This document shows, in pieces, positions 1-11,008 of a DNA stretch of 64,000 nt. Made by a program: the position numbers and the translations under genes. How positions within the stretch are numbered: position 1 is the first letter of the stretch; each line of letters opens with the position of its first letter. Location of the stretch: contig CAJNDO010000009.1 in the NCBI GenBank assembly GCA_905221545.1, positions 1 to 64,000 of the forward strand. The letters run 5' to 3'. Below the pieces are notes generated by a model. It worked only from the letters and a program-made list of their open reading frames with translations. It did not search any database and was not told the origin of the DNA. Source of the DNA: a bacterium. GTDB taxonomy: Bacteria; Bacillota; Bacilli; Lactobacillales; Streptococcaceae.

Positions 1-28
1 ATCATCATAAGTTAATTTCATAATAAAA

Positions 29-72
29 GCACCCCAAAAGTTAGATTTTTTCTGTCTAACTTTTGGGGTGCA
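29..72. repeat. Perfect 17-bp inverted repeat, IS3/IS150-like end
   Basis: Two 17-base arms, GCACCCCAAAAGTTAGA and its exact complement, flank a 10-base T-rich loop. The right arm continues into GTGCAGTTC, so read on the minus strand it begins GAACTGCACCCC. That resembles the terminal inverted repeats of IS150-group IS3 elements (IS861-like) as I remember them. No transposase lies inside the window to its right, so it may be the right end of an element that continues leftwards, or a solo remnant. It could also act as a bidirectional terminator. Confidence 0.5.
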
Positions 73-101
73 GTTCAAAGTGACTTTGGTGCTTTAAAGT
101 T

Positions 102-255
102 AATACTCTTCGAAAATCTCTTCAAACTACGTCAGCGTCGCCTTGCCGTATGTATGTGTTACTGACTTCGTCAGTTCTATCTACAACCTCAAAACAGTGT
201 TTTGAGCAGCCTGCGGCGAGCTTTCTAGTTTGCTCTTTGATTTTCATTGAGTATA
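102..255 (+). repeat. BOX element (A-B-C)
   Basis: The stretch begins ATACTCTTCGAAAATCTC, continues through the CGTCAGCGTCGCCTT core and an internal stem around CTGACTTCGTCAG, and ends TTTGATTTTCATTGAGTAT. This is the boxA-boxB-boxC arrangement of the pneumococcal BOX repeat, with one boxB. It lies downstream of the rgg-family gene and reads toward its 3' end. BOX elements are non-autonomous repeats that occur in many copies in S. pneumoniae and its close relatives. Confidence 0.9.
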
Positions 256-286
256 AAAACATGTTACTCTGTATGGATGTTGATGG

Positions 287-1213
287 CTATTCTTCATCTT
301 CCGTAGGGAATGGAATACCCGTTTTATTTAGTCGTTGAACCTCTTGGATAAATGCATTTTTCCAAGAATACATATATGGTAGTGGGGAAAAGTCGTTCTG
401 GGCATCAATGTAATGAAGAAGACTATTAGCTCGTTCAATAGCCTTAGGGTTGTTTTGTCGAAGTAGATTGTATACTTTATACATGTTCAAAAAAAATAGG
501 GGATGCATTGCAATGGTAGCGTAGGCTTCTTGAGTTAGTATTAGTTTTAACTTATAGATGAGTTTTTCAGCTTTATCGTAGTAGCCATAGCGAGAGTAAG
601 TCCTAACCAAATTAAGACCACAGTGAATATGTATGTGAGTAAAATCTACAATTCTATATTGAACCTCATCTAATTCTTTAACGATTAGATTTTCGAGGTA
701 TTCAAGGAATTGTACTTCAAAAAATTGACCTTCAAAATCAAGGAGAACATTAACAATAACAAAATCACGAATATAAAGTGTATCTATACTTAAGATATAG
801 TCAATCAAGTAATGAATAGCTTCTAGTTCATCAAGGGTGACTTCATCCAATCTCCTTGAATGTTTGCTAATGTATAATTTTAGTGTGTAATATTCTATGA
901 CACTTGTCCACTCACTTTTTTCCCCTAATAGTTGTCTGGCTTTGGTCAAATCCTTTTTACTGATTGCATTATTAAATTGTTTTACTCTTTGAGCATTCTT
1001 ATCTTGAATATTTAACACTTCTGCATAGTCTACTGACTCTAAATTAAATCTGTTCAAAATTTCAAAAAAAGTATCGACTTTGACAGTTGCTAAACCTTTT
1101 TCAAAACGACTGAGGTTGTTGGGAGTAATGGCATCTCCAGCAGCCTCTTTAAGGCTCATATTGCGATCTTGACGGAGTTTATAAATGATTTCTCCATAGT
1201 GATTTGATTCCAT
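287..1213 (-). CDS. Rgg/GadR/MutR-family transcriptional regulator
   Basis: The 308-residue protein has an N-terminal HTH_3 (Xre-type) domain at about residues 8-65, including NNLSRFEKG in the recognition-helix region. A long all-helical TPR-like C-terminal domain follows. This is the standard plan and length (about 280-300) of Rgg/MutR regulators, which sense short peptides or act as stand-alone regulators. The ATG at 1211-1213 is preceded by a GGAGAAC Shine-Dalgarno on the minus strand. The gene is divergent from the LPXTG operon starting at 1405, and the shared 191-bp region carries two palindromes, so local control of that operon is likely. I found no obvious SHP-type peptide ORF beside it, so the signal, if any, is unknown. 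The family call is firm; the target is inferred. Confidence 0.88.
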   Translation of the reverse strand: MESNHYGEIIYKLRQDRNMSLKEAAGDAITPNNLSRFEKGLATVKVDTFFEILNRFNLESVDYAEVLNIQDKNAQRVKQFNNAISKKDLTKARQLLGEKSEWTSVIEYYTLKLYISKHSRRLDEVTLDELEAIHYLIDYILSIDTLYIRDFVIVNVLLDFEGQFFEVQFLEYLENLIVKELDEVQYRIVDFTHIHIHCGLNLVRTYSRYGYYDKAEKLIYKLKLILTQEAYATIAMHPLFFLNMYKVYNLLRQNNPKAIERANSLLHYIDAQNDFSPLPYMYSWKNAFIQEVQRLNKTGIPFPTEDEE

Positions 1214-1272
1214 AATGTTCTCCTTGAGCTTTATTGGTTTTATTATAACTTAAATTTCTCCATTTTTGAAAA

Positions 1273-1345
1273 AACTACTGTTTTTAGTAGATTTTTTTGG
1301 AAAAGTCGGGGAGGGGGATAAATTTCTACTGTTTTCAGTAGAAAT
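1273..1345. promoter_or_regulatory. Twin palindromic operator candidates between rgg and the surface operon
   Basis: The first site, at 1275-1290, has arms CTACT and AGTAG around GTTTTT, with A/T flanks extending the symmetry. The second, at 1322-1345, is a perfect 10-base arm (ATTTCTACTG) palindrome with a TTTT centre. Both share the CTACTGTTTT.AGTAG core, and their centres are 51 bp apart, close to five helical turns. The second ends about 25 bp upstream of the TATAAT box. This is a typical activator position, where an Rgg dimer could help RNA polymerase. Confidence 0.6.
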
Positions 1346-1367
1346 ATCCAAAAAGGAGATTATTTAC

Positions 1368-1375
1368 TGTATAAT
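1368..1375 (+). promoter_or_regulatory. -10 element of the surface operon promoter
   Basis: TGTATAAT contains a consensus TATAAT at 1370-1375, about 30 bp before the ATG at 1405. No good -35 hexamer lies 17 bp upstream (around 1347-1352). A strong -10 without a -35, directly downstream of a palindrome, suggests activator dependence. The ribosome-binding site AAAGGAG is at 1392-1398. Confidence 0.6.
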
Positions 1376-1404
1376 CAAGTCAATTAAAAGTAAAGGAGAT
1401 AAGG

Positions 1405-4356
1405 ATGAAAAAGTCCCTAATTATAACAACTGCTACAGTGGCTGGTTTGGGAGTCACTGCAACTACCCCAACAGTTTTCGCTACTGAAGCGCCAACGGGA
1501 AACACAGTAACTACTGCAGTCAACGATAAGGTCACAGACAAAGACCTGTCTGACGCTGAAAAACGCGCTGTAGATTCCTCTAAAGATGCTGAACAAAAAG
1601 CAAAAGATGCGGGTCAAGCCAAAGACGAGCTTGACAAGGCACAAAAAGACAAATCCGCTAAGAAAGCTGAAAAAGAAGCCATTGAAAAAGACCTTAAAAA
1701 GGCAGAAAGCGCTACACCTGAAAAAATCAAAGATGAAACAGATGATGTAGATGCGAAAGAAAAGGCTAAAGCTGACAAAGACGTAGATGCCAAAGATAAG
1801 GCAACCCAAGTCGACCAAAAGTCTGACGAGGCCAAACGTGCTCATGATGAACTTGACAAGGCTCGTACCGGGGTTGAAAAGGCTGACAAAGAGGTGAAAG
1901 ACGCAACGGACGACTTTGACCCAGCCGCTAAAGAAAAGGCGCAACAAGAAAAAGACGACGCGGATAAAGATGTGCGTATCAAAGACCACGCTAAACGCGA
2001 TGCGGAAACAGAGCTAGAAAAAGCAAAAGAAGACGACAAAACGCGTGAAGCTAAGAAAGTTCAAGAACGCAAAAACAAAGCCGATAAAGAAGCTGATAAA
2101 ACAGCAAAAGAAGGCGATGTCAAAGATGCAAAACAAGCCATCAAAGACGCGGAAGAAAAGCTGAAAACCGCTCAATATCCAAAAGAGGTCGTCCTGACTC
2201 CAGAATGGCGAGACAAAGCGAAAGAGTTGATTCACAAATACAAAGAACCATATCCAGAGCCATACCCAGATATGACAGGTATGGACCTAGACCAAATCAA
2301 CAAAGCTGACGAAGCTTGGAGCGCTCGTCGCAACGTTTGGTTGGACCAGCAACAAAAAGAAATACGAAGATTAGAAAAAGAGTTAGTTGAATTAGACCGT
2401 GAAACAGATGAAAAATGGATGGAAAAAATTCAAAATATCACCACTAAGGGACTTCAAGATGAAGAAACAGACGTCAAATATGACCCCAATAACCTTCCTC
2501 AAGATGTCGTAGATGAATTGAATGACCGATTTATTACTCTTCTCAACAATCTTCGTAAACAATTAGACTTGCCAGAGGCAAAAATCAATACAAATAATAA
2601 AGATTTTGCCAAAGAAGTCGCAAAAGTTTACAAAGACAATGACTATCAAGGCGAAGGCCATTTTGGGCGTGGAATTAATGATGTTGCTCGCAAACGAGGG
2701 TTGAAAGTGTCTGAAAATCCTGGTGTTGAAACTCATTCTCAATATTATGAAAATCTCATGAGTCTCCCTAAGAGCACAGACAAAATGACTAGACAAGAAC
2801 TTATTGCAAGTTTGACAGAAACGTTTATGTCGTTCTTTGCGGAAGGGTACTCAACGGGTAGTTATGGTCACTTCTATAGTCTCTTAACCTCCGATAATTT
2901 GGGATTAAACACCTCTCTTATCAAAGGTGGGCAACTTTTAGTTGACTATGGCGACCCAGATTTGACACACATCTTCCGCATTCACGTTTTAAATGTTGAA
3001 GATAAAATTCTAATCGACAACACTGATTCAACAGCGCAAAAAGCTAAGTTTGATGAACTCTATGGGCCAAACTCGAAAGCCAATCTTCCAACCCCAACGG
3101 TGAAAGACAAACAAGAAGTTGAAGCGGAATTGGAAAAAGCCAAAGCTGATAAGAAGACAGCTGAAGACAACTTGGAACACGTGAAAACAGAGCTTCAAGA
3201 AATTGAGAAACGCATTGCCGACTTGGAAAACGAAGTGTCTGAAACACCAACCAAAGAAGCAAAACGCACCGAAGCTGTCAAAGAGCTTGAAAAAGCGAAA
3301 GAAAAAGCAGAAGATGCCAAACGTAAGTTGGAACGTGCAACTCTTGACGACAACGCCAAATCATTGCGTCTAGAAAAAGCTCGCAAGGCAAAAGCCGAAG
3401 CTGATAAAGAATTGGCTAAGAAATTGGCGGAAAGTCAACAAAAAGATAAAGACTTGGAAAATGCGAAGATTGAGCGATTGAAAGCGGACAAAGAGTTGAA
3501 AGACGCAGAAGACGCACTACAAAAAGCAAAAGACAAGTTGGCAGAAACCCTTCGTTTGAGCCAAGAAAAAGGCAAATTGGAAGCAGAATTGCAAGCTAAA
3601 TCAAAAGAGTTGGATGAAGTCTGCAAACACGTAGACGACTTGAAACGCGACGTGAAGCAAAAAGAAGACGAAGCCGAGAAAGCGAGAAAAGTCAAAGACG
3701 AAGCGGAACGAGAGTATCAAAAACTACTTCTTCGTAAGACAATCGACGACGCTATCATTCCAGAGCAACCAGAATTCAAAGGTGGCGTGAACGGTGAAGG
3801 TCTAATCCAACCAGAACTACCAGAGTTCCCACTAGATAAATTGCCTAAGGATGATGAGCCTAAGGATGATGAGCCTAAGGATGATGAGCCTAAGGATGAT
3901 GAACCAGGCAAAGAACCAGGCAAAGAACCAGGTAAAGAACCGGGCAAAGAACCAGGTAAAGAGCCAGGCCAAGAACCGGGTAAAGAGCCGGGCAAAGAAC
4001 CAGGTAAAGAGCCGGGCAAAGAACCAGGTAAAGAGCCAGGCCAAGAACCGGGTAAAGAACCGGGCAAAGAACCAGGCCAAGAACCGGGTAAAGAACCGGG
4101 TAAAGAACCAGGTGAAGAACCAGGTAAAGAGCCGGGCAAAGAACCAGGCCAAGAGCCAGGTCAGGCTGGTAACCAAGATGTGAAATCTGTGGGACAAGCA
4201 CCAAGCTATCAAGCGCCAGCAGTTTTATCTCCAGCCCAAGAAGAAGCTGGACAAAAAGCATTGCCAAATACTGGCAGTCAAATCAGCCTCCTAGCTTTAT
4301 TAGGATATGGCTTATTGGCAGGGTTGGGCATTGTTTTAAAGAAAAAAGAGGGATAA
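1405..4356 (+). CDS. LPXTG-anchored coiled-coil surface protein with SEC10/PgrA-like core
   Basis: This 983-residue sortase substrate has a signal peptide at 1-27 (MKKSLIITTATVAGLGVT..., cleavage near VFA). It has two Lys/Glu/Asp/Ala-rich coiled-coil blocks at about 40-340 and 570-800. Between them, at about 370-560, is a globular region with NNLRKQLDLP, GEGHFGRGIND and GSYGHFYSLL, resembling the SEC10/PgrA surface-exclusion family. A proline-rich wall-spanning stretch of DEPKD and PGKE repeats occupies about 812-925. The C-terminal sorting signal is LPNTG, a hydrophobic segment, then KKKEG. The plan is PspA-like, but the anchor is sortase, not choline. The function is unknown; adhesion or immune evasion is possible. 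It is the first gene of the probable four-gene operon and starts at the ATG with AAAGGAG in front. Confidence 0.85.
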   Translation: MKKSLIITTATVAGLGVTATTPTVFATEAPTGNTVTTAVNDKVTDKDLSDAEKRAVDSSKDAEQKAKDAGQAKDELDKAQKDKSAKKAEKEAIEKDLKKAESATPEKIKDETDDVDAKEKAKADKDVDAKDKATQVDQKSDEAKRAHDELDKARTGVEKADKEVKDATDDFDPAAKEKAQQEKDDADKDVRIKDHAKRDAETELEKAKEDDKTREAKKVQERKNKADKEADKTAKEGDVKDAKQAIKDAEEKLKTAQYPKEVVLTPEWRDKAKELIHKYKEPYPEPYPDMTGMDLDQINKADEAWSARRNVWLDQQQKEIRRLEKELVELDRETDEKWMEKIQNITTKGLQDEETDVKYDPNNLPQDVVDELNDRFITLLNNLRKQLDLPEAKINTNNKDFAKEVAKVYKDNDYQGEGHFGRGINDVARKRGLKVSENPGVETHSQYYENLMSLPKSTDKMTRQELIASLTETFMSFFAEGYSTGSYGHFYSLLTSDNLGLNTSLIKGGQLLVDYGDPDLTHIFRIHVLNVEDKILIDNTDSTAQKAKFDELYGPNSKANLPTPTVKDKQEVEAELEKAKADKKTAEDNLEHVKTELQEIEKRIADLENEVSETPTKEAKRTEAVKELEKAKEKAEDAKRKLERATLDDNAKSLRLEKARKAKAEADKELAKKLAESQQKDKDLENAKIERLKADKELKDAEDALQKAKDKLAETLRLSQEKGKLEAELQAKSKELDEVCKHVDDLKRDVKQKEDEAEKARKVKDEAEREYQKLLLRKTIDDAIIPEQPEFKGGVNGEGLIQPELPEFPLDKLPKDDEPKDDEPKDDEPKDDEPGKEPGKEPGKEPGKEPGKEPGQEPGKEPGKEPGKEPGKEPGKEPGQEPGKEPGKEPGQEPGKEPGKEPGEEPGKEPGKEPGQEPGQAGNQDVKSVGQAPSYQAPAVLSPAQEEAGQKALPNTGSQISLLALLGYGLLAGLGIVLKKKEG
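3844..4163 (+). repeat. In-frame tandem repeats (DEPKD x4, then PGxE x21)
   Basis: A 15-bp unit (CCTAAGGATGATGAG) is repeated four times from 3844. It is followed by about 21 copies of a 12-bp unit encoding PGKE, PGQE or PGEE up to about 4160. Synonymous variation (CCAGGC, CCAGGT, CCGGGC, CCGGGT) shows higher-order blocks. All units are multiples of three, so slippage changes the length of the wall-spanning stalk without shifting frame. Confidence 0.95.
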
Positions 4357-4359
4357 AAA

Positions 4360-4716
4360 TTGAAAAAGAAACTAGCATTTGTATTATCGTTAGTGACTAG
4401 CTTATTGCTTCTTGCAGCCTGCTCATCAGCAGATGGAACCTATGTCTATCAAGGTAGCATGCCATTTATGGAAGAAGCAACTGTGACTATCCAAATCAAG
4501 GGTGACAAGGGACAAGTTCATACCAAAGGAAAAACGATTGGTATCCTAACAGAAGGCAAGCCAACGGAGCAGACAGACGAGATGAAGGTCAATCAGAAAG
4601 AAAAGACTCTTGAATTGTCTTCACTAAAACTAGGTTATGAAATCAAAGGTGGAGAGTTGACCATTACTTCAGATCCTTCTGGTGTACTAGCTGGTAAATC
4701 TTTTAAAAAGAAATAA
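4360..4716 (+). CDS. Small lipoprotein, unknown function
   Basis: This is a 118-residue protein. A lipoprotein signal peptide (MKKKLAFVLSLVTSLLLLAAC) places the lipobox LLAAC at residues 17-21, so the mature protein is probably a lipid-anchored domain of about 98 residues on the outer membrane face. The mature part is predicted mostly beta (alternating VTIQIKG, KTLELSS, LTITSD). I do not recognise a named family. The start is TTG at 4360, only 3 bases after the stop of the LPXTG gene; its Shine-Dalgarno (AGAGGG) lies in the end of that gene, implying coupling. It sits between the sortase-anchored protein and a second, larger lipoprotein. No catalytic motif is visible, so a binding or chaperone role is only a guess. 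Confidence 0.75.
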   Translation: MKKKLAFVLSLVTSLLLLAACSSADGTYVYQGSMPFMEEATVTIQIKGDKGQVHTKGKTIGILTEGKPTEQTDEMKVNQKEKTLELSSLKLGYEIKGGELTITSDPSGVLAGKSFKKK

Positions 4717-4727
4717 AGGGAGGGACT

Positions 4728-5819
4728 ATGTCCAAGAAAGGCATCTTTAGTAGCTTGTTAGTGGCTAGCTCAGTGCTTTTATTAGCAGCCTGTGGGCAGC
4801 AAGCTAGCCAGACAAGCGAAGCTGAGTCGGCTGACGCCACAGTTCAAACCAATGCTTCAGACGCCAAAAAAGCTGAACAAGCCAAGATTGATTACCAGAT
4901 TGTCTATCAGAATATCTTAGACTCCTATAGAGAGCGAGTTAAGACAGCACAAAAACAACAAATGCCACAGAATTCGACAGGTGACAAAGAAGAGTCTTAT
5001 ATCGATTCCATTTTGTTTGATTACCAAGGGAAAGACATCAGCTATACTTTCTACGACATCAATAAGGATGGCAAGAAAGAATTGCTGATTAAGCAAGATA
5101 AGGTCTTGCTTGGGATTTACTATCTGACAGATCAGGGAGCCCAGCTAGTCAAGGCTGGTGGGGTTGCTGGTAAAGGTGGTTCACGTCAAATCTTGATTCC
5201 TTATGAAAATGGCGCCATCTCTTACTTGATTTTCAGCGCTTCTAGACCGGAGGCCATTGCTAAAACTTATCTCTTTGCAGATGGCCGTTATCAGGAAGCC
5301 AGCTCAGTCAACTATGATTTGAGAGAAACCAAGGATCCTTCAAGTTTACAAGGGTTAGATGGGATTAAAGAGGTGGACTTAGAAGGCTTGAACTGGTTGA
5401 TTTTTGATGATGCTTCAGCAAGTCGTCCTTTTATTGACCTAGAGGAGCAGGCTAAGGGCCCAGGTGCTCATTTGGCTGAGATTCATCAGAAAAACTTTAG
5501 CAGTATCAAAGGTACTTGGAAGAATAACAAGGGTGGCGAAGTCACTTTTGATGAGAATGGCTTTACAAATGGAGCGGTCTTGACTGATGCAGCACCGAAG
5601 ATTGTAAATAATATGGCTCAATTTGGTATGACTTCAAGTAGTGGTGTAGGTGGCGCATCTGTTACCCTTATTCCACAAGGAGTTGTGCATCCAGACTTTA
5701 ATGCAGGCGATGCAACTTATACAGATGCGTCTGACAGTAGCAAGGATCGGTTGTTGATTGCCCAATATGCAGGTGCATTATCCGATCCAAACGAATTTTA
5801 TTATAAGGTTAGTGAGTAA
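4728..5819 (+). CDS. Lipoprotein with EF-hand-like loop and DUF6287-like C-terminus
   Basis: The 363-residue protein has a lipoprotein signal (lipobox LLAAC at about residues 18-22, mature start CGQQ). A low-complexity linker rich in Ala, Ser, Thr and Gln follows. A middle domain contains DINKDGKKELLI, a calcium-binding-style Dx(N)xDG loop seen in VCBS/FG-GAP-like repeats, and a C-terminal domain begins near SSIKGTWKNNKGGEVTF. That last domain resembles the streptococcal DUF6287 family as I recall it, an unverified assignment. The ATG at 4728 has GGGAGGG eight bases upstream, and the gene lies 11 bp after the small lipoprotein gene. It is probably co-transcribed with its neighbours. A surface-exposed binding role is plausible but not shown. 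Confidence 0.75.
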   Translation: MSKKGIFSSLLVASSVLLLAACGQQASQTSEAESADATVQTNASDAKKAEQAKIDYQIVYQNILDSYRERVKTAQKQQMPQNSTGDKEESYIDSILFDYQGKDISYTFYDINKDGKKELLIKQDKVLLGIYYLTDQGAQLVKAGGVAGKGGSRQILIPYENGAISYLIFSASRPEAIAKTYLFADGRYQEASSVNYDLRETKDPSSLQGLDGIKEVDLEGLNWLIFDDASASRPFIDLEEQAKGPGAHLAEIHQKNFSSIKGTWKNNKGGEVTFDENGFTNGAVLTDAAPKIVNNMAQFGMTSSSGVGGASVTLIPQGVVHPDFNAGDATYTDASDSSKDRLLIAQYAGALSDPNEFYYKVSE

Positions 5820-5836
5820 AAAAGGAGAAATAAAAT

Positions 5837-6760
5837 ATGAAATTAAAACACGTATTGACAGGAACAGTGATGGGGTTGAGCCTCGTGATGGCAGGGGTAT
5901 GGAACTCTGTAGGAGCTAAGAATCTTTCAGATCATTTTGAAAGAGCTACAGTTCGTCCTGATGATGGTAATGATATAAATTTTTCAGGTTACACAACTCT
6001 AGTAGATATTGATACAAAAGAAGAGTTAAAGTATTTGGGGCGTGGAAGAGGTCCTGCAGAGACAATTGAAGGATATACTTATGTGAATAGTGTAAAAATT
6101 GATTCTCCATTAGGAGATAACTTGTTCCACCAATACAAGAAGAATGAATCTAGTCCCAAATATAACCTACCAAATGTTGATACAGTATCAATTCCAAAAT
6201 ATCCATTACCAGCTAAAGAACCTATAGGACCAGAAAACGAGTCTAAAAAGAATTATGTAATCCCAGATCCAGGTTTTACATCAGGAGATCCTTTGAACAG
6301 AAATTCAAAAAAATCTGTAGAAACTCCAAAAGCTAAACAAGTAGGTTGGGTTTTAGAAAACGGTAAATGGTTCTACTTTGACCAGTCAGGACGTAAACAA
6401 GTAGGTTGGCTCCAAGTAGGTGGTGTTTGGTATTATCTTGCTAATGATGGTCAAATGCAACTTGGCTGGCTCTACATCGGGAATGCATGGTACTACCTTA
6501 ATGGCTCAGGTGCAATGGTAACAGGATGGTTCCAAACAGGCGGTGTTTGGTATTATCTTAGTGGCTCAGGAGTCATGGTAACAGGTTGGCTTCATCAAGG
6601 GAACACTTGGTATTACCTAAACGGTTCAGGTGCTATGAATAAAGGTGGCTGGTCTCAAGTTGGAAAATCATGGTATTACTTCACAAACTCAGGAGCTCTT
6701 TTGGTAAATACTACAACACCAGATGGCTATCGCGTGAATGCTAATGGTGAGTGGGTGTAG
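5837..6760 (+). CDS. Choline-binding surface protein
   Basis: This 307-residue protein has a signal peptide at 1-27 (ending VGA). An N-terminal unique region of about 130 residues (DDGNDINFSGYTTLVDIDTKEE, then Pro-rich segments) has no recognisable domain. Six tandem choline-binding repeats at about 165-285 follow the pattern GW(4)W/FYF/YL(2)DGSG. They should attach the protein non-covalently to phosphocholine of teichoic acids. The length and plan are close to small Cbp proteins of the CbpC/CbpF/CbpJ kind, but I cannot assign one. The ATG has AAAGGAG nine bases upstream. The gene is 17 bp after the lipoprotein gene with no terminator between, so it is probably the last gene of the Rgg-linked operon. 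Its coupling to choline restricts the locus to the pneumococcus group. Confidence 0.88.
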   Translation: MKLKHVLTGTVMGLSLVMAGVWNSVGAKNLSDHFERATVRPDDGNDINFSGYTTLVDIDTKEELKYLGRGRGPAETIEGYTYVNSVKIDSPLGDNLFHQYKKNESSPKYNLPNVDTVSIPKYPLPAKEPIGPENESKKNYVIPDPGFTSGDPLNRNSKKSVETPKAKQVGWVLENGKWFYFDQSGRKQVGWLQVGGVWYYLANDGQMQLGWLYIGNAWYYLNGSGAMVTGWFQTGGVWYYLSGSGVMVTGWLHQGNTWYYLNGSGAMNKGGWSQVGKSWYYFTNSGALLVNTTTPDGYRVNANGEWV

Positions 6761-7064
6761 GAGTGACAGAGCTATAGTCATACTTGATAGATAAAATATA
6801 TTTTAGATATATCGTATTTAAGGTCCATTTGCTAGTATTAGCAATGCAAGAAAGAGTTCAATATCAATATTCTATGATGAATAATTTGGAAATATAAATT
6901 GTTAAAAATATACCTTCACAACAAAGTGACAAGCATCTCCAAGAGGGGGTGCTTGTTTGTTCATTTGATGTTTATGCAAGCTGATATGCTCAATTTTTCT
7001 TTGGTTTGACAGTCTATTGAAATAAGACTATAATCAAGCTGTATCAGTTTTCGAGGAGGTTTGG
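6761..7064. other. 304-bp intergenic region after the surface operon
   Basis: This A/T-rich stretch has no convincing ORF. It has a small hairpin, TTGCTA-GTAT-TAGCAA, at 6829-6844 without a T-tract, a terminator at 6929-6960, and the RBS GAGGAGG before the acetyltransferase ATG at 7065. A -10-like TATAAT lies at 7029-7034 just after GACTA. Confidence 0.6.
6929..6962 (+). terminator. Probable terminator of the surface operon
   Basis: The arm ACAAGCATCTCC pairs with GGGGGTGCTTGT across the loop AAGA, with one G:T pair, and is followed by TTGTTCATTT. It lies about 170 bp after the choline-binding protein gene. Confidence 0.7.
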
Positions 7065-7475
7065 ATGCACTTTAGATTGGAAAATAAGGAATCCCAGAAG
7101 GCGCAAGAAATTGGGAATTTGATTCGTGCTTATAACCGTTCCAAAAGAGAAGAGGATGAAAGTGAGCCATTGAATCTTTATGTTGAAGATGAAAAAGGCA
7201 ATCTTCTGGCGGGCTTGGTAGCTGAGACTTTTGGAAATTGGCTAGAAATCGAGTATTTGTTTGTGAAAGAGGAACTGAGAGGGCAAGGAATTGGTTCAAA
7301 ACTATTGCAACAGGCAGAAAGTGAAGCTAAGAATCGAAACTGTCGTTTTGCCTTTGTCAATACTTACCAGTTTCAGGCACCTAATTTTTATCAGAAACAT
7401 GGATACAAGGAAGTTTTTAGGTTACAAGACTATCCTTACACAGGGAAAAGATTTTACTATCAAAAGGATTTGTAA
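7065..7475 (+). CDS. GNAT-family N-acetyltransferase
   Basis: This 136-residue single-domain GNAT has the acetyl-CoA binding motif A as LFVKEELRGQGIGSKLLQ (about residues 66-83, R/QxxGxG/A core RGQGIG). A typical end, APNFYQKHGYKE, is near residue 110. The substrate is unknown; such short GNATs modify small molecules or protein N-termini. The ATG at 7065 follows GAGGAGG by seven bases. The gene stands alone, with the surface-operon terminator upstream and a 440-bp gap downstream. There is no sign of linkage to either neighbour. The family call is strong and the function cannot be given. Confidence 0.85.
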   Translation: MHFRLENKESQKAQEIGNLIRAYNRSKREEDESEPLNLYVEDEKGNLLAGLVAETFGNWLEIEYLFVKEELRGQGIGSKLLQQAESEAKNRNCRFAFVNTYQFQAPNFYQKHGYKEVFRLQDYPYTGKRFYYQKDL

Positions 7476-7918
7476 GGAGAATATGAAAGTATAAGGCAAA
7501 GAGGGGAGCTTGACATAAGTCTCGATAAATACCAGTAAAATCCTACAAATTGTGTCTTTCTGGGCGATATTGGGTACAATGCAATCGCACATTGGGAATC
7601 AAGGTCTATCAGGTTAAGAAAAGAACTGCTGTCGTCAAAATTTTGAAATAATTTATTTAAAGTCAACACTCTCTATTTTTTATGGTAGAGAGTTTTTGTT
7701 AATAAAATTTTACAAAATGACATTTATATATTGAATTGGGGTATGGAAATGGGCTCAGAAAAAATTTGAGCAAGACATGGATGAATTGGAGAGTGAAGAA
7801 TAGCTTGTTACTCTTTTCTCAATCCAGCTAAAATGTGATATAATAGTACTAATTTATTGGAATACATGAAAGTTTTTGAAAATTTTTATGTATTTCTAGC
7901 TAAGGAAGTAGGAAAAGT
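7476..7918. other. 443-bp gap with gene debris, orphan terminator and pncB promoter
   Basis: No intact gene is visible. On the plus strand, an open stretch without a start codon runs to a stop at 7649-7651 (ending KVYQVKKRTAVVKILK). A second short open tail, ending KKFEQDMDELESEE, stops at 7801-7803. Both look like the 3' ends of decayed genes, though chance frames are possible. A terminator is at 7669-7697 and an extended -10 (TGATATAAT, 7836-7844) precedes pncB. A TTGACA at 7510-7515 has only a poorly spaced TAAAAT (7536-7541). Confidence 0.5.
7669..7697 (+). terminator. Intrinsic terminator
   Basis: CTCTCTA (7669-7675) pairs with TAGAGAG (7686-7692) and is followed by TTTTT. It is about 190 bp after the acetyltransferase stop and has no intact gene directly upstream. 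Confidence 0.75.
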
Positions 7919-9379
7919 ATGTATCCAGATGATAGTTTGACATTGCACACAGACTTGTACCAGATTAATATGATGCAGGTTTACTTTGACCAAGGGATTC
8001 ACAATAAGAAGGCGGTCTTTGAGGTGTATTTCCGCCAACAGCCTTTTAAGAACGGCTATGCGGTTTTTGCTGGTTTGGAAAGAATTGTGAACTATCTTGA
8101 AGACTTGCGTTTTTCAGATAGTGATATTGCCTATTTGGAGTCGCTTGGCTATCATGGGGAATTCTTGGACTATCTTCGCAATTTCAAGTTGGAGTTGACC
8201 GTTCGTTCTGCCCAAGAAGGGGATTTGGTTTTTGCTAATGAACCGATTGTGCAGGTGGAAGGCCCTCTAGCCCAATGTCAGTTGGTCGAAACAGCTCTTT
8301 TGAACATCGTTAACTACCAGACCTTGGTGGCTACTAAGGCAGCACGTATTCGTTCAGTCATTGAAGATGAACCCTTGATGGAGTTTGGGACACGTCGGGC
8401 TCAAGAAATGGATGCGGCTATCTGGGGAACACGCGCAGCGGTGATTGGTGGTGCCAATGGAACCAGCAACGTGCGTGCTGGTAAACTCTTTGACATTCCT
8501 GTCTTGGGGACTCACGCCCATGCCTTGGTACAGGTTTATGGTAACGACTATGAGGCCTTCAAGGCTTATGCTGCGACCCATAAAAATTGTGTCTTTCTTG
8601 TGGATACCTATGACACCCTTCGTATCGGTGTGCCAGCTGCTATTCAGGTGGCGCGTGAGCTGGGTGACCAGATTAACTTTATGGGTGTGCGGATTGACTC
8701 TGGGGATATTGCCTATATTTCCAAGAAAGTCCGTCAGCAACTGGATGAGGCTGGATTTACAGAGGCTAAGATTTATGCTTCAAATGACCTAGATGAAAAT
8801 ACTATCCTCAACCTCAAGATGCAAAAGGCCAAGATTGATGTTTGGGGTGTGGGAACCAAGCTGATTACAGCCTATGACCAGCCAGCTCTTGGTGCAGTTT
8901 ATAAGATTGTGGCCATCGAAGATGAAAATGGTAACATGCGTAATACCATCAAGCTGTCTAATAATGCGGAAAAAGTGTCTACGCCAGGTAAGAAGCAGGT
9001 GTGGCGCATTACCAGTCGTGAAAAAGGCAAGTCAGAAGGTGACTACATAACTTATGATGGTGTGGATGTGAGCGACATGACAGAAATCAAGATGTTCCAT
9101 CCGACTTATACATACATCAAGAAGACCGTTCGTAATTTTGATGCTGTTCCTCTCTTGGTGGATATTTTCAAAGATGGAAAATTGATTTACACCCTGCCTA
9201 GCTTGACTGAAATTCAGGCCTATGCCCGTAAGGAATTTGACAAGCTGTGGGATGAGTACAAGCGCGTGCTCAATCCTCAGCATTATCCAGTGGATTTGGC
9301 GCGTGATGTATGGCAAGACAAGATGGACTTGATTGACAAGATGCGCAAGGAAGCCCTTGGAGAAGGAGAAGAAGAATGA
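7919..9379 (+). CDS. pncB: Nicotinate phosphoribosyltransferase
   Basis: The 486-residue cytosolic enzyme joins nicotinate and PRPP to nicotinate mononucleotide, the first step of NAD salvage (Preiss-Handler route). The N-terminal [14 protein letters not shown], central FGTRRAQ and [19 protein letters not shown], and [14 protein letters not shown] segments are typical of the NAPRTase family. Its length matches Gram-positive members. The ATG at 7919 lies after AGGAAG; an extended -10 (TGATATAAT) is about 75 bp upstream. Its stop overlaps the nadE start in ATGA at 9376-9379, so the two NAD genes are translationally coupled. In TIGR4, as I recall, this pair is SP_1421-SP_1420, far from the genes that follow here. 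Confidence 0.95.
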
Positions 9380-10200
9380 GTTTGCAAGAAACGATTATCC
9401 AAGAACTGGGTGTGAAACCAGTGATTGATGCCCAAGAAGAAATCCGTCGTTCCATTGATTTTTTAAAGAGATATCTGAAAAAACATCCCTTCCTAAAAAC
9501 CTTTGTACTAGGGATTTCCGGAGGACAAGACTCAACCTTGGCAGGTCGCTTGGCCCAATTAGCTATGGAAGAACTGCGAGCAGAAACTGGCGATAACAAC
9601 TATAAATTTATCGCTGTCCGCCTGCCATACGGAGTGCAAGCTGATGAAGCAGATGCTCAAAAATCCCTCGCTTTTATCCAGCCGGATGTCAGCTTGGTTG
9701 TGAATATCAAGGAATCAGCTGATGCTATGACAGCTGCAGTTGAAGCGACAGGAAGCACTGTTTCAGACTTCAACAAGGGAAATATCAAGGCACGTTGCCG
9801 TATGATTGCCCAGTATGCCCTGGCAGGTGCCCATAGCGGAGCGGTCATTGGGACAGACCATGCTGCGGAAAATATCACAGGTTTCTTTACCAAGTTTGGT
9901 GACGGTGGTGCAGATATTTTACCCCTGTTCCGCCTCAATAAACGTCAAGGGAAACAACTCTTGAAGGAACTTGGTGCAGACCCAGCCCTTTATGAAAAAA
10001 TCCCAACAGCAGACCTAGAAGAAGACAAACCTGGTCTAGCTGATGAAGTAGCTCTCGGAGTCACCTATGCAGAGATTGACGACTACTTAGAAGGCAAACA
10101 AGTTAGCCCAGAAGCTCAAGCGACTATCGAAAACTGGTGGCACAAAGGCCAACACAAACGCCACCTACCCATCACCGTATTTGATGACTTTTGGGAGTAA
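9376..10200 (+). CDS. nadE: Ammonia-dependent NAD+ synthetase
   Basis: The 274-residue protein converts nicotinate adenine dinucleotide, ATP and ammonia to NAD+, the last step of NAD synthesis. The PP-loop ATP pyrophosphatase motif is [15 protein letters not shown] (SGGxDS, about residues 44-58), and [22 protein letters not shown] and PLFRLNKRQ follow. There is no N-terminal glutaminase domain, which fits the short ammonia-using form. The start overlaps the pncB stop by four bases. The gene ends one base before a terminator. Together with pncB it allows NAD synthesis from imported nicotinate. Confidence 0.96.
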
Positions 10201-10201
10201 A

Positions 10202-10403
10202 AACCTCCAGTGGAGGTTTTTACCCTGAGCCTAGAAATGAGAAAGCGAAGAAGGTCCAGTGGACCTTTTTAGCTTCTTGCCTTGAAACTTGAGAGCAAGA
10301 ATAACCTCCAGTGGAGGTTTTTACCCTGAGCCTAGAAATGAGAAAGTGAAGAAGGTCCGGTGGACCTTTTTAGCTTATTACCTTGAGATTCGAAATCAAA
10401 ACA
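10202..10403. repeat. Tandem duplication (101-bp period) of a double-terminator block
   Basis: Two adjacent copies, from 10202 and 10303, share long identity. Each contains two hairpins: AACCTCC-AGT-GGAGGTT (10202-10218, 10303-10319) and AGGTCC-AGT-GGACCT followed by TTTTT (about 10251-10270, 10353-10371). The second copy has a G in the second loop (GGT) and diverges after about 10375. The four hairpins in series form a strong stop after nadE. Confidence 0.9.
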
Positions 10404-10456
10404 AGTTTCAATGGAGATTGAACAGAGAATCATCTATTAGAAAGCGAGGTAACATT

Positions 10457-11008
10457 ATGAAAGCAATCGGTACGCAAGTATTACAGACAGAACGTTTAAT
10501 CTTGAGAAGATTTGTGGAGAGTGATGCGGAAGCCATGTTTCAAAATTGGGCTTCGTCTGCTGAGAATCTGGCCTATGTCACCTGGGATCCTCATCCTGAT
10601 GTTGAGGTCACTCGAAACTCGATTTGTAATTGGGTTGGCTCCTATACAAATCCCAACTATTACAAATGGGCCATTTGTCTCAAAGAAAACCCAGAGCAAG
10701 TGATAGGGAATATCAGCATCGTTGAAATGGATGAGAATGATTCTTGTTGTGAAATTGGGTATATTTTAGGAAAAAACTATTGGGGTCGTGGTATGATGAC
10801 GGAGGCTTTGAAAGCTGTCTTAGACTTTTGTTTTACTCAAGCAGGCTTTCAAAAGGTCAGAGCTCGATATGCCAGTCTCAATCCAGCTTCAGGTCGTGTC
10901 ATGGAGAAGGCTGGGATGTCCTATCTAAAGACTGTTACAAATGGTGCCGAGAGAAAAGGCTATGTTGCAGACCTTATTTATTATCAGATAAGTAAGAAGG
11001 ATAGATAA
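10457..11008 (+). CDS. RimJ/RimL-family GNAT acetyltransferase
   Basis: This is a 183-residue protein from the ATG at 10457, which follows GAGGT; a longer in-frame reading from 10289 would run through the terminator repeat and is unlikely. It has the RimJ/RimL plan: an N-terminal LQTERLILRRFVESDAEAMF, an acetyl-CoA loop YWGRGMMTEALKAVLDFCF (about residues 108-126), then NPASGRVMEKAGM near residue 150. Enzymes of this group acetylate protein N-termini or small amines such as antibiotics or polyamines; the substrate here is not known. It is flanked by the terminator repeats and the Rpn nuclease gene and is probably transcribed alone. Confidence 0.86.
   Translation: MKAIGTQVLQTERLILRRFVESDAEAMFQNWASSAENLAYVTWDPHPDVEVTRNSICNWVGSYTNPNYYKWAICLKENPEQVIGNISIVEMDENDSCCEIGYILGKNYWGRGMMTEALKAVLDFCFTQAGFQKVRARYASLNPASGRVMEKAGMSYLKTVTNGAERKGYVADLIYYQISKKDR

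What the first reader, a model, noticed from the sequence alone, without database searches (positions are those of the whole stretch)
287..6760. Rgg-linked operon that displays proteins by three different anchoring chemistries
A divergent Rgg/MutR regulator faces four genes with gaps of 3, 11 and 17 bp and no terminator between them. They encode a sortase-anchored LPXTG coiled-coil protein, two lipoproteins, and a choline-binding protein. A single transcript delivering wall-covalent, membrane-lipid and teichoic-acid-bound proteins together is unusual and suggests one surface complex spanning the envelope. The gene content was seen; a shared complex is inference.
Basis: partly seen in the sequence, partly recalled or inferred. 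Interest (0 to 1): 0.72.

Follow-up and report, generated by a model that had tools for sequence, protein, structure and literature searches.

The report
Rgg-switched modular surface-protein operon
A Streptococcus close to S. mitis carries a swappable set of four surface-protein genes beside a regulator gene, and the control DNA between them has two matching regulator-like sites around a stretch of Gs that varies in related strains, a possible dial for what the cell shows on its surface.

Summary
A divergent Rgg gene (287-1213) faces four close-packed genes: a wall-anchored PrgA-like CAP-domain protein, two lipoproteins and a choline-binding protein, with gaps of 3, 11 and 17 bp and no terminator-like site at the junctions. 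Co-transcription is plausible. The proposed single fixed complex is not supported: the parts are separable. Of seven genomes with this Rgg, four have both lipoproteins, two a different choline-binding gene, two a 74-aa remnant of it and three none; the LPXTG gene is another protein in three. The insertion site is empty in 79 of 90 genomes compared. What is constant is the switch region: two copies of CTACTGTTTTNAGTAG 50-52 bp apart in seven of seven loci measured, each 27-28 bp from the -10 box of its own promoter. Between them lies a G tract, pure G9-G11 in three relatives, interrupted here (G4AG5). A distant Rgg lineage has similar site pairs 51-58 bp apart around G13-G20, though that repeat is statistically weaker. 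Genus-wide, 31 of 61 long G tracts lie just before exported-protein genes, against about 6% of random positions. My reading: an Rgg-controlled modular surface cassette with a tunable, probably phase-variable spacer, apparently locked in this strain. Binding and switching are inferred.

The parts
287..1213 (-). rgg: Rgg/MutR-type regulator (HTH plus TPR-like C-terminal part)
   Evidence: HTH_3 25.4 bits; family profile to solved regulator chains E 6.2e-15
1242..1270 (-). predicted rgg promoter, TTCAAA-17-TATAAT
   Evidence: -10 to site 1 distance 27-28 bp in 7 of 7 locus-A copies measured
1275..1290 (.). operator-like site 1, CTACTGTTTTTAGTAG
   Evidence: 2 sites in 64 kb with up to 2 mismatches, 0.19 expected; conserved in relatives
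1308..1317 (+). interrupted G tract GGGGAGGGGG, in the spacer between the two sites; pure G11, G11 and G9 in three relatives
1326..1341 (.). operator-like site 2, CTACTGTTTTCAGTAG (part of a 24-nt dyad)
1370..1375 (+). predicted -10 box TATAAT of the operon; no good -35; 28 bp after site 2
   Evidence: 28 bp in 7 of 7; not among the promoter-like sites
1405..4356 (+). LPXTG-anchored coiled-coil stalk protein with PrgA-type CAP head
   Evidence: TIGR04320 121.9 bits, LPXTG; PrgA by sequence and by fold
4360..4716 (+). lipoprotein A, 118 aa
   Evidence: lipobox LAAC in the sequence
4728..5819 (+). lipoprotein B, 363 aa, C-terminal DUF6287
   Evidence: PF19804 36.4 bits, cut-off 26.3; model pLDDT 83
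5837..6760 (+). choline-binding protein, 307 aa, with an N-terminal part that differs between strains
   Evidence: PF19127, PF01473, PF19085; variants and remnants
6928..6957 (+). terminator-like stem-loop after the operon (13 pairs; the T run is poor)

Best explanation
This is a modular surface-display cassette of mitis-group streptococci under a local Rgg regulator. Shown: the gene order, the three anchor types, the insertion site in relatives, the swapping and loss of parts, and a symmetrical control region with two copies of one dyad, each 27-28 bp from the -10 box of its own promoter and about 51 bp apart. Inferred: Rgg binds both dyads, activates the operon (which has no good -35) and its own gene, and pairs across the roughly five helical turns between them. 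The G tract between the dyads is a slippage-prone spacer in relatives; changing its length leaves each dyad fixed to its own promoter but changes the spacing and angle between the two Rgg dimers, so it should tune or switch the operon. Here the tract is broken by an A at near-canonical spacing, which should hold this strain in one state. The product is a set of partly independent surface proteins: a PrgA-like CAP head on a long stalk, two membrane lipoproteins and a teichoic-acid-bound protein whose exposed part varies. It need not be one complex.
For: Twin sites: only two in 64 kb with up to 2 mismatches, 0.19 expected; the 15/16 repeat across the spacer is reached in 0 of 300 shuffles for the window and for G032, 1 of 300 for G107's 14/16. 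Spacing 50-52 bp in 7 of 7 copies, site-to--10 distances 28 (operon) and 27-28 (rgg) in 7 of 7; two copies keep 51 bp with a spacer that holds no G tract. Pure tracts G11, G11, G9 in G032, G259, G107. A distant Rgg lineage (locus C, about 23% identity) has similar site pairs, spacing 51, 52, 53, 53, 58 for G13, 14, 15, 15, 20; a further Rgg-type locus (L224, G15) repeats 15/16 with 0 of 300 shuffles. Runs of G13 or more: 6 in 12 chosen genomes, 0.0097 expected per 2.1 Mb. Of 61 G12+ tracts kept, 31 have an exported-protein gene just downstream in sense, against 116 of 2000 random positions and 51 of 800 random non-coding ones; antisense only 5. Modularity.
Against: In this window the tract is interrupted, so switching may not occur in this strain; G093's is interrupted too and G197 and G200 have none. 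In locus A the spacing is nearly constant (50-52), which fits a fixed spacer as well as a switch. The repeat test is weak for G259 (67 of 300), for single copies of locus C (2 to 92 of 300) and for L145 (46 of 300), and tracts at other promoters used as controls give 14 to 292 of 300, so locus C alone is not clearly set apart. G9+ tracts stand at 10 of the 25 Rgg loci; locus B has none. Counts of G9+ tracts are not above the dinucleotide expectation (31 in 12 genomes against about 3.8 per genome). Genome-wide the site pattern with up to 2 mismatches is rarer than its reversed control (3 to 10 against 16 to 20 per genome in five genomes), so no wider regulon shows. Length variation was seen between species' representatives, not within one strain. 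No binding or expression data exist here.
Confidence: 0.55

Rival explanations
1. One obligate envelope-spanning complex: the four products assemble from membrane to wall surface and are made together for that reason.
For: Close packing and conserved order in G032, G107, G138, G259; in the four genomes with a close lipoprotein A, lipoprotein B follows it; DUF6287 lipoproteins share a same-strand run with LPXTG or choline-binding genes in 8 of 37 cases against 1 of 25 other lipobox genes and 17 of 552 other genes.
Against: G093 keeps Rgg and the LPXTG gene (76% identity) without the other three; the choline-binding gene is a 74-aa remnant in G032 and G259; the LPXTG protein is replaced in G107 while lipoprotein A stays 88-89% identical.
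Confidence: 0.15
2. The G tract is an inert or stiff spacer with no role in switching; only the roughly 51-bp distance between the two sites matters.
For: L134 and L135 keep 51 bp with an unrelated spacer; the window and G093 have interrupted tracts at 51 and 52 bp.
Against: Pure long G tracts recur in a second Rgg lineage, where they differ from 13 to 20 between species, and sit inside or beside promoters of other surface genes mostly in one orientation.
Confidence: 0.3
3. A mating- or phage-barrier module: the PrgA-like head cleaves or masks surface partners, as PrgA does in enterococcal surface exclusion, and the other genes support it.
For: PrgA similarity by sequence and fold; passages of PMC10588982 describe PrgA as a protease domain on a long stalk that gives surface exclusion.
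Against: TIGR04320 proteins above cut-off occur in 94 of 147 genus genomes, several in many of them, so the family is not tied to this cassette; the catalytic state of this head was not tested.
Confidence: 0.15
4. The twin dyads belong to another DNA-binding protein, and Rgg acts elsewhere or only represses.
For: No binding data; a single site with 1 mismatch exists elsewhere in G032, G138 and G259.
Against: Among the five genomes searched, pairs about 51 bp apart occur only at this locus (in G138 the two sites lie at the ends of two contigs, and G001 lacks the locus); similarly placed pairs lie beside some other Rgg genes.
Confidence: 0.2

Closest known systems
Rgg/SHP and other RRNPP regulators next to their targets
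   Same: Regulator gene divergent from its likely target operon; operator-like site just upstream of the operon's -35 region (the usual layout is recalled); profile match to solved regulator chains
   Different: No convincing short peptide gene in the 191-bp intergenic region; two operator-like copies with a G tract between them
PrgA (Sec10/PgrA) of enterococcal pCF10
   Same: LPXTG anchor, coiled-coil stalk, CAP head
   Different: Chromosomal cassette linked to lipoproteins and a choline-binding protein; a PrgB-like partner or secretion genes were not searched for
Phase-variable promoters with repeats that move a regulator site (Bordetella fim C tract, Neisseria nadA; both recalled)
   Same: A slippage-prone repeat near the promoter of a surface gene
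   Different: Here the repeat lies between two operator-like sites of divergent promoters, so both site-promoter distances stay fixed and only the site-site spacing changes
CSC/WxL cell-surface clusters of lactobacilli (recalled)
   Same: Several surface proteins with different anchors in one cluster
   Different: Other families; the parts here are separable and swapped

Membership tests
Rgg/MutR regulators | N-terminal HTH | tested here: met
   PF01381 25.4 bits, cut-off 23
Rgg/MutR regulators | Rgg C-terminal (TPR) part | tested here: inconclusive
   PF21259 17.7 bits, below cut-off 27; the profile of 19 relatives aligns to 4yv6 over positions 5-290, E 6.2e-15, and to 10lg, named MutR family, over 5-273
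Rgg/SHP quorum-sensing pair | short hydrophobic peptide gene beside rgg | tested here: inconclusive
   only the intergenic regions were scanned; a TTG-started minus-strand frame recurs at one place in 6 of 7 locus-A copies but differs in length and sequence and has no clear ribosome site; no ATG-started peptide is shared
Sec10/PgrA (PrgA) surface proteins | TIGR04320 above cut-off, CAP fold, LPXTG anchor | tested here: met
   121.9 bits against 70, LPXTG 22.1 against 15.9; Foldseek 6z9k E 1.7e-7 on a model of pLDDT 78
Sec10/PgrA (PrgA) surface proteins | role in surface exclusion or proteolysis | not testable with these tools
   needs assays
Choline-binding proteins | choline-binding repeats | tested here: met
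   PF19127, PF01473, PF19085 above cut-offs
Homopolymer contingency loci | uninterrupted long tract in the promoter region | tested here: not met
   window tract is G4AG5; met in G032, G259 and G107
Homopolymer contingency loci | tract length differs between isolates or cells and changes expression | not testable with these tools
   one genome per species held; lengths differ between species

The most novel reading that the evidence does not exclude
Streptococci carry a family of Rgg-controlled surface cassettes in which a slippage-prone poly-G tract sets the distance between twin Rgg operators of two divergent promoters, so that random tract changes re-phase the two Rgg dimers and switch the cassette without touching either promoter. 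This is one part of a genus-wide set of poly-G contingency promoters in front of exported-protein genes.
Probability: 0.45. Interest if true: 0.82.

Novelty: new variant of a known kind. Interest (0 to 1): 0.62.

Why it matters
If the twin-operator spacer works as proposed, a deterministic local regulator and a random slippage switch would be wired into one short region, and the surface of commensal streptococci close to the pneumococcus could be reshuffled in two ways: by changing which cassette parts are present and by changing tract length. It would also mean that surface-protein expression cannot be read from gene presence alone in these species. The idea is directly testable from sequencing reads of isolates.

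Tried and rejected
Fixed complex as the main reading: weakened by G093, the remnants and the swaps. Distant lipoprotein A relatives as a guide to function: they lie in varied contexts (an AAA+ pair, mobile-looking neighbourhoods, others) and gave no clear role; my own HMM for lipoprotein A drifted to signal peptides and was not used for counts. Lipoprotein B fold: good model but no solved relative at E 0.001, so no function from it. Pheromone peptide gene in the intergenic region: nothing convincing. Rfam on 1-10500: no match at gathering scores. An excess of G9+ tracts per genome: not found; only length, place and orientation are unusual. A hand classification of 29 of the 31 G9+ tracts in 12 genomes, most chosen because they hold Rgg loci, put 22 at surface-gene or Rgg-surface loci; two tracts were not fetched. 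I replaced it as main evidence by an automatic rule with controls.

Rows dropped: 23 of 120 GNAT hits (those at 68-73% identity) were left out; of the 97 kept, 2 were split over contigs and 5 had no permease row among those I gave the script. In one search, 11 of the 86 G12+ places were not given (5 of these had been seen in earlier loci); of the 75 given, 11 tracts (genomes G003 and G255) were dropped as G-rich or N-rich stretches and 3 as contig edges, leaving 61. The random controls come from the 40 regions L149-L188 and use shorter windows than the tracts. Those 40 regions were picked from the hit list; for a few (G096, G090, G130) I had already seen a choline-binding neighbour, so the 8 of 37 is not blind, and it counts orthologous loci more than once. 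G138's cassette is inferred across a contig break.
Full report
WHAT IS THERE. The gene coordinates and gaps of the finding are exact. The first gene's product is a PrgA-type wall protein (TIGR04320 121.9 bits with cut-off 70; LPXTG domain above cut-off). PrgA itself (6z9k, 6z9l) is found by sequence (E 1.9e-7 and 3.1e-6), and an AlphaFold2 model of the middle region (25 sequences, mean pLDDT 78) has the PrgA CAP domain as its best solved match (E 1.7e-7, probability 1.00). Lipoprotein B carries DUF6287 at its C-terminus; its model is good (pLDDT 83) but has no confident solved relative. The last gene encodes a choline-binding protein. The three junctions hold no plus-strand terminator-like site, and a strong stem-loop follows the operon.

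WHERE IT SITS. The window's own assembly is not held. Close relatives of lipoprotein A (88-97% identity) occur in 4 of 284 genus genomes: G032, G107, G138 and G259. The named collection gives S. mitis OD_317805_11, S. mitis SK667 and Streptococcus sp. 2342 for relatives of lipoprotein B, on contigs whose lengths equal those of G107, G138 and G259. In G032, G107 and G259 the cassette lies between an amino-acid permease gene and the GNAT gene that also follows it in the window; in G138 the two halves stand on two contigs. The window itself starts too late to show the permease. Over 97 genomes with a GNAT gene of at least 80% identity, 90 have both flank genes on one contig; 79 of these 90 show an empty site of 99-165 bp and 11 carry inserts of 4 to 30 kb. 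Four of the 11 inserts are this cassette (G032, G093, G107, G259). Four others carry a giant LPXTG gene, two of them with another choline-binding gene (G200, G094, G265, G109). One (G262) has runs of N, and two (G110, G217) were not fetched. The site is a hotspot for surface-protein cassettes.

WHAT IS CONSTANT AND WHAT IS NOT. An Rgg of 63-80% identity occurs in 7 of 284 genomes. An LPXTG gene starts divergently from it in 6 of 7 directly; in G138 the two genes stand at the ends of two contigs. In G107, G197 and G200 the LPXTG gene is another protein, and that of G107 has a Pfam CAP match of its own (23.7 bits, cut-off 21.1). Lipoproteins A and B are present together in 4 of 7. The choline-binding gene is whole but of another N-terminal type in G107 and G138, a 74-aa remnant in G032 and G259, and absent from the fetched locus in G093, G197 and G200. 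In G200 the cassette lies elsewhere in the genome beside a copy of the permease's end, a sign of movement. So the four genes are not obligate partners, while Rgg plus a wall protein is the stable core.

A WIDER FAMILY. Other Rgg genes face surface operons of the same flavour: locus B (Rgg, two choline-binding genes, a small gene, a DUF6287 lipoprotein) in G001, G107, G261 and G232; locus C (Rgg, choline-binding genes, a DUF6287 lipoprotein) in G067, G107, G077 and G096, the last two with other genes between; and Rgg with LPXTG genes in several more. In 40 regions picked from the lipoprotein B hit list, 8 of 37 DUF6287 genes share a same-strand run with an LPXTG or choline-binding gene, against 1 of 25 other lipobox genes and 17 of 552 other genes. 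The 8 include orthologous loci, and for a few regions I had seen the neighbours before, so this is suggestive only; most DUF6287 genes (29 of 37) have other contexts.

THE SWITCH REGION. The 191 bp between rgg and the operon hold two copies of CTACTGTTTTNAGTAG (1275-1290 and 1326-1341); no other copy with up to 2 mismatches lies in the 64-kb window, and 0.19 are expected. Over the window and six relatives (G032, G259, G107, G093, G197, G200) the two sites are 51, 52, 51, 50, 52, 51 and 51 bp apart; site 2 ends 28 bp before the operon's -10 box in 7 of 7, and site 1 lies 27-28 bp from the rgg -10 box in 7 of 7. The layout is mirror-symmetrical. Between the sites lies a G tract: G4AG5 in the window, GGGAGGAGGGG in G093, G11 in G032 and G259, G9 in G107, and none in G197 and G200, which nevertheless keep 51 bp. 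G138's contigs end inside this spacer: site 2 and the start of a G run close one contig and site 1 opens the other. The 15/16 repeat across the spacer is reached in 0 of 300 shuffles for the window and G032, 1 of 300 for G107 (14/16) and 67 of 300 for G259, whose sites are degenerate. In five whole genomes, pairs about 51 bp apart occur only here; single matches with up to 2 mismatches are fewer than for the reversed pattern, so no wider regulon shows.

INDEPENDENT RECURRENCE. Locus C, whose Rgg is about 23% identical, has a pair of similar sites (TTACGNTTTTTTC or TTACGNTTTTTC beside the tract, ATACGNTTTT after it) around G13, G14, G15, G15 and G20, 51, 52, 53, 53 and 58 bp apart, again with a fixed distance to the -10 box. 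A further Rgg-type locus (L224) has a 15/16 repeat across G15 that 0 of 300 shuffles reach, and L262, also beside an Rgg-like gene, has 12/16 across G17 (3 of 300). For single locus C copies and L145 the repeat is weaker (2 to 92 of 300; 46 of 300), and eight tracts at other promoters, taken as controls, give 14 to 292 of 300, so those loci alone are not clearly set apart. Of the 25 Rgg loci, 10 have a G9+ tract; locus B has none. In G107 the only two G9+ tracts of the genome are the Rgg promoters of loci A and C, and in G077 the only one is locus C; G138, G093 and G197 have none.

GENUS-WIDE TRACTS. Runs of at least 12 G occur at 86 places in 49 of 284 genomes. I examined 75 of these places in 70 loci; after dropping 11 tracts in G-rich or N-rich stretches and 3 at contig edges, 31 of 61 tracts have an exported-protein gene (signal-peptide, YSIRK or serine-rich-repeat type by a simple rule) starting within 300 bp in sense with the G strand or overlapping the tract near its start. 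Only 5 have one in antisense alone; random positions give 116 of 2000 and random non-coding positions 51 of 800. The controls come from regions fetched for lipoprotein B relatives, and orthologues recur among the tracts. Some tracts sit inside the -35/-10 spacer (L199: TTGACA, 9 nt, G9, TATACT). The count of G9+ runs is not above expectation (31 in 12 genomes, about 3.8 expected per genome); runs of G13 or more are (6 in those 12, 0.0097 expected per genome), with the caution that the 12 were mostly chosen for their Rgg loci.

MECHANISM. Shown: gene content, modularity, site geometry, tract placement. Inferred: that Rgg binds the two dyads, activates, and that tract slippage changes output. 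The layout makes a sharp prediction: tract changes cannot alter either site-promoter distance, only site-site spacing, so they should act through cooperation between two Rgg dimers about five turns apart. In this window the A within the tract should suppress slippage, so this strain is probably fixed at 51 bp.

LITERATURE. Searches of the held library listed no paper that, by title and abstract start, treats poly-G promoter tracts in streptococci or this operon; one search listed 10 of 28, and most subscription journals are not in the library. I read passages only of PMC10588982 (PrgA), PMC8895709 (Rgg and phase variation treated in separate sections) and PMC6722419 (comparative genomics of the mitis group; no mention of Rgg, SP_1417 or surface exclusion in its main text). 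The Bordetella and Neisseria comparisons, the Rgg/SHP layout, the identity of 4yv6 and the lactobacillar clusters are recalled.

On recounting I corrected the number of tract places not given to (11, not 16), added the shuffle results against my reading and the reversed-pattern control, and weakened the peptide-gene test to inconclusive. None of these moved my odds.

Noticed in passing
L073:9668-12088, L089:10488-12908, L091:1100-4133: A SpoVK/CbbX/EccA-like AAA+ gene followed by a small gene lies after the cassette in G032 and G259, and a similar pair lies beside a distant lipoprotein A relative in G162.
   Followed up: partly
L097, L098, L100, L101: At the same insertion site other species carry giant YSIRK/LPXTG genes (2391-2941 aa) after a small coiled-coil gene, with G10-G14 tracts 315-422 bp upstream of that small gene.
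   Followed up: partly
L193, L191, L195, L208: Long G runs inside coding regions: a gene that looks like a restriction-specificity subunit, a glycosyltransferase-like gene, and a choline-binding gene after its signal peptide, where slippage would shift the frame (the first two names are by eye).
   Followed up: no
L211, L241-L244: G154 has five LPXTG genes each preceded, 128-129 bp upstream, by G13 on the non-coding strand: the reverse orientation and a constant length.
   Followed up: no
window 100-262: Stretch after rgg that resembles the pneumococcal BOX repeat (recalled; no Rfam match).
   Followed up: no
window 7006-7034: A perfect 12 of 12 sigma-70 consensus (TTGACA-17-TATAAT) before the GNAT gene, after the operon.
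   Followed up: no
L148:2610-4052: A DUF6287-like domain in an LPXTG protein divergent from an Rgg gene (by my own HMM).
   Followed up: no
G003 loci L223 and L248-L251: G-rich, low-complexity stretches that look like assembly artefacts; left out of counts.
   Followed up: no
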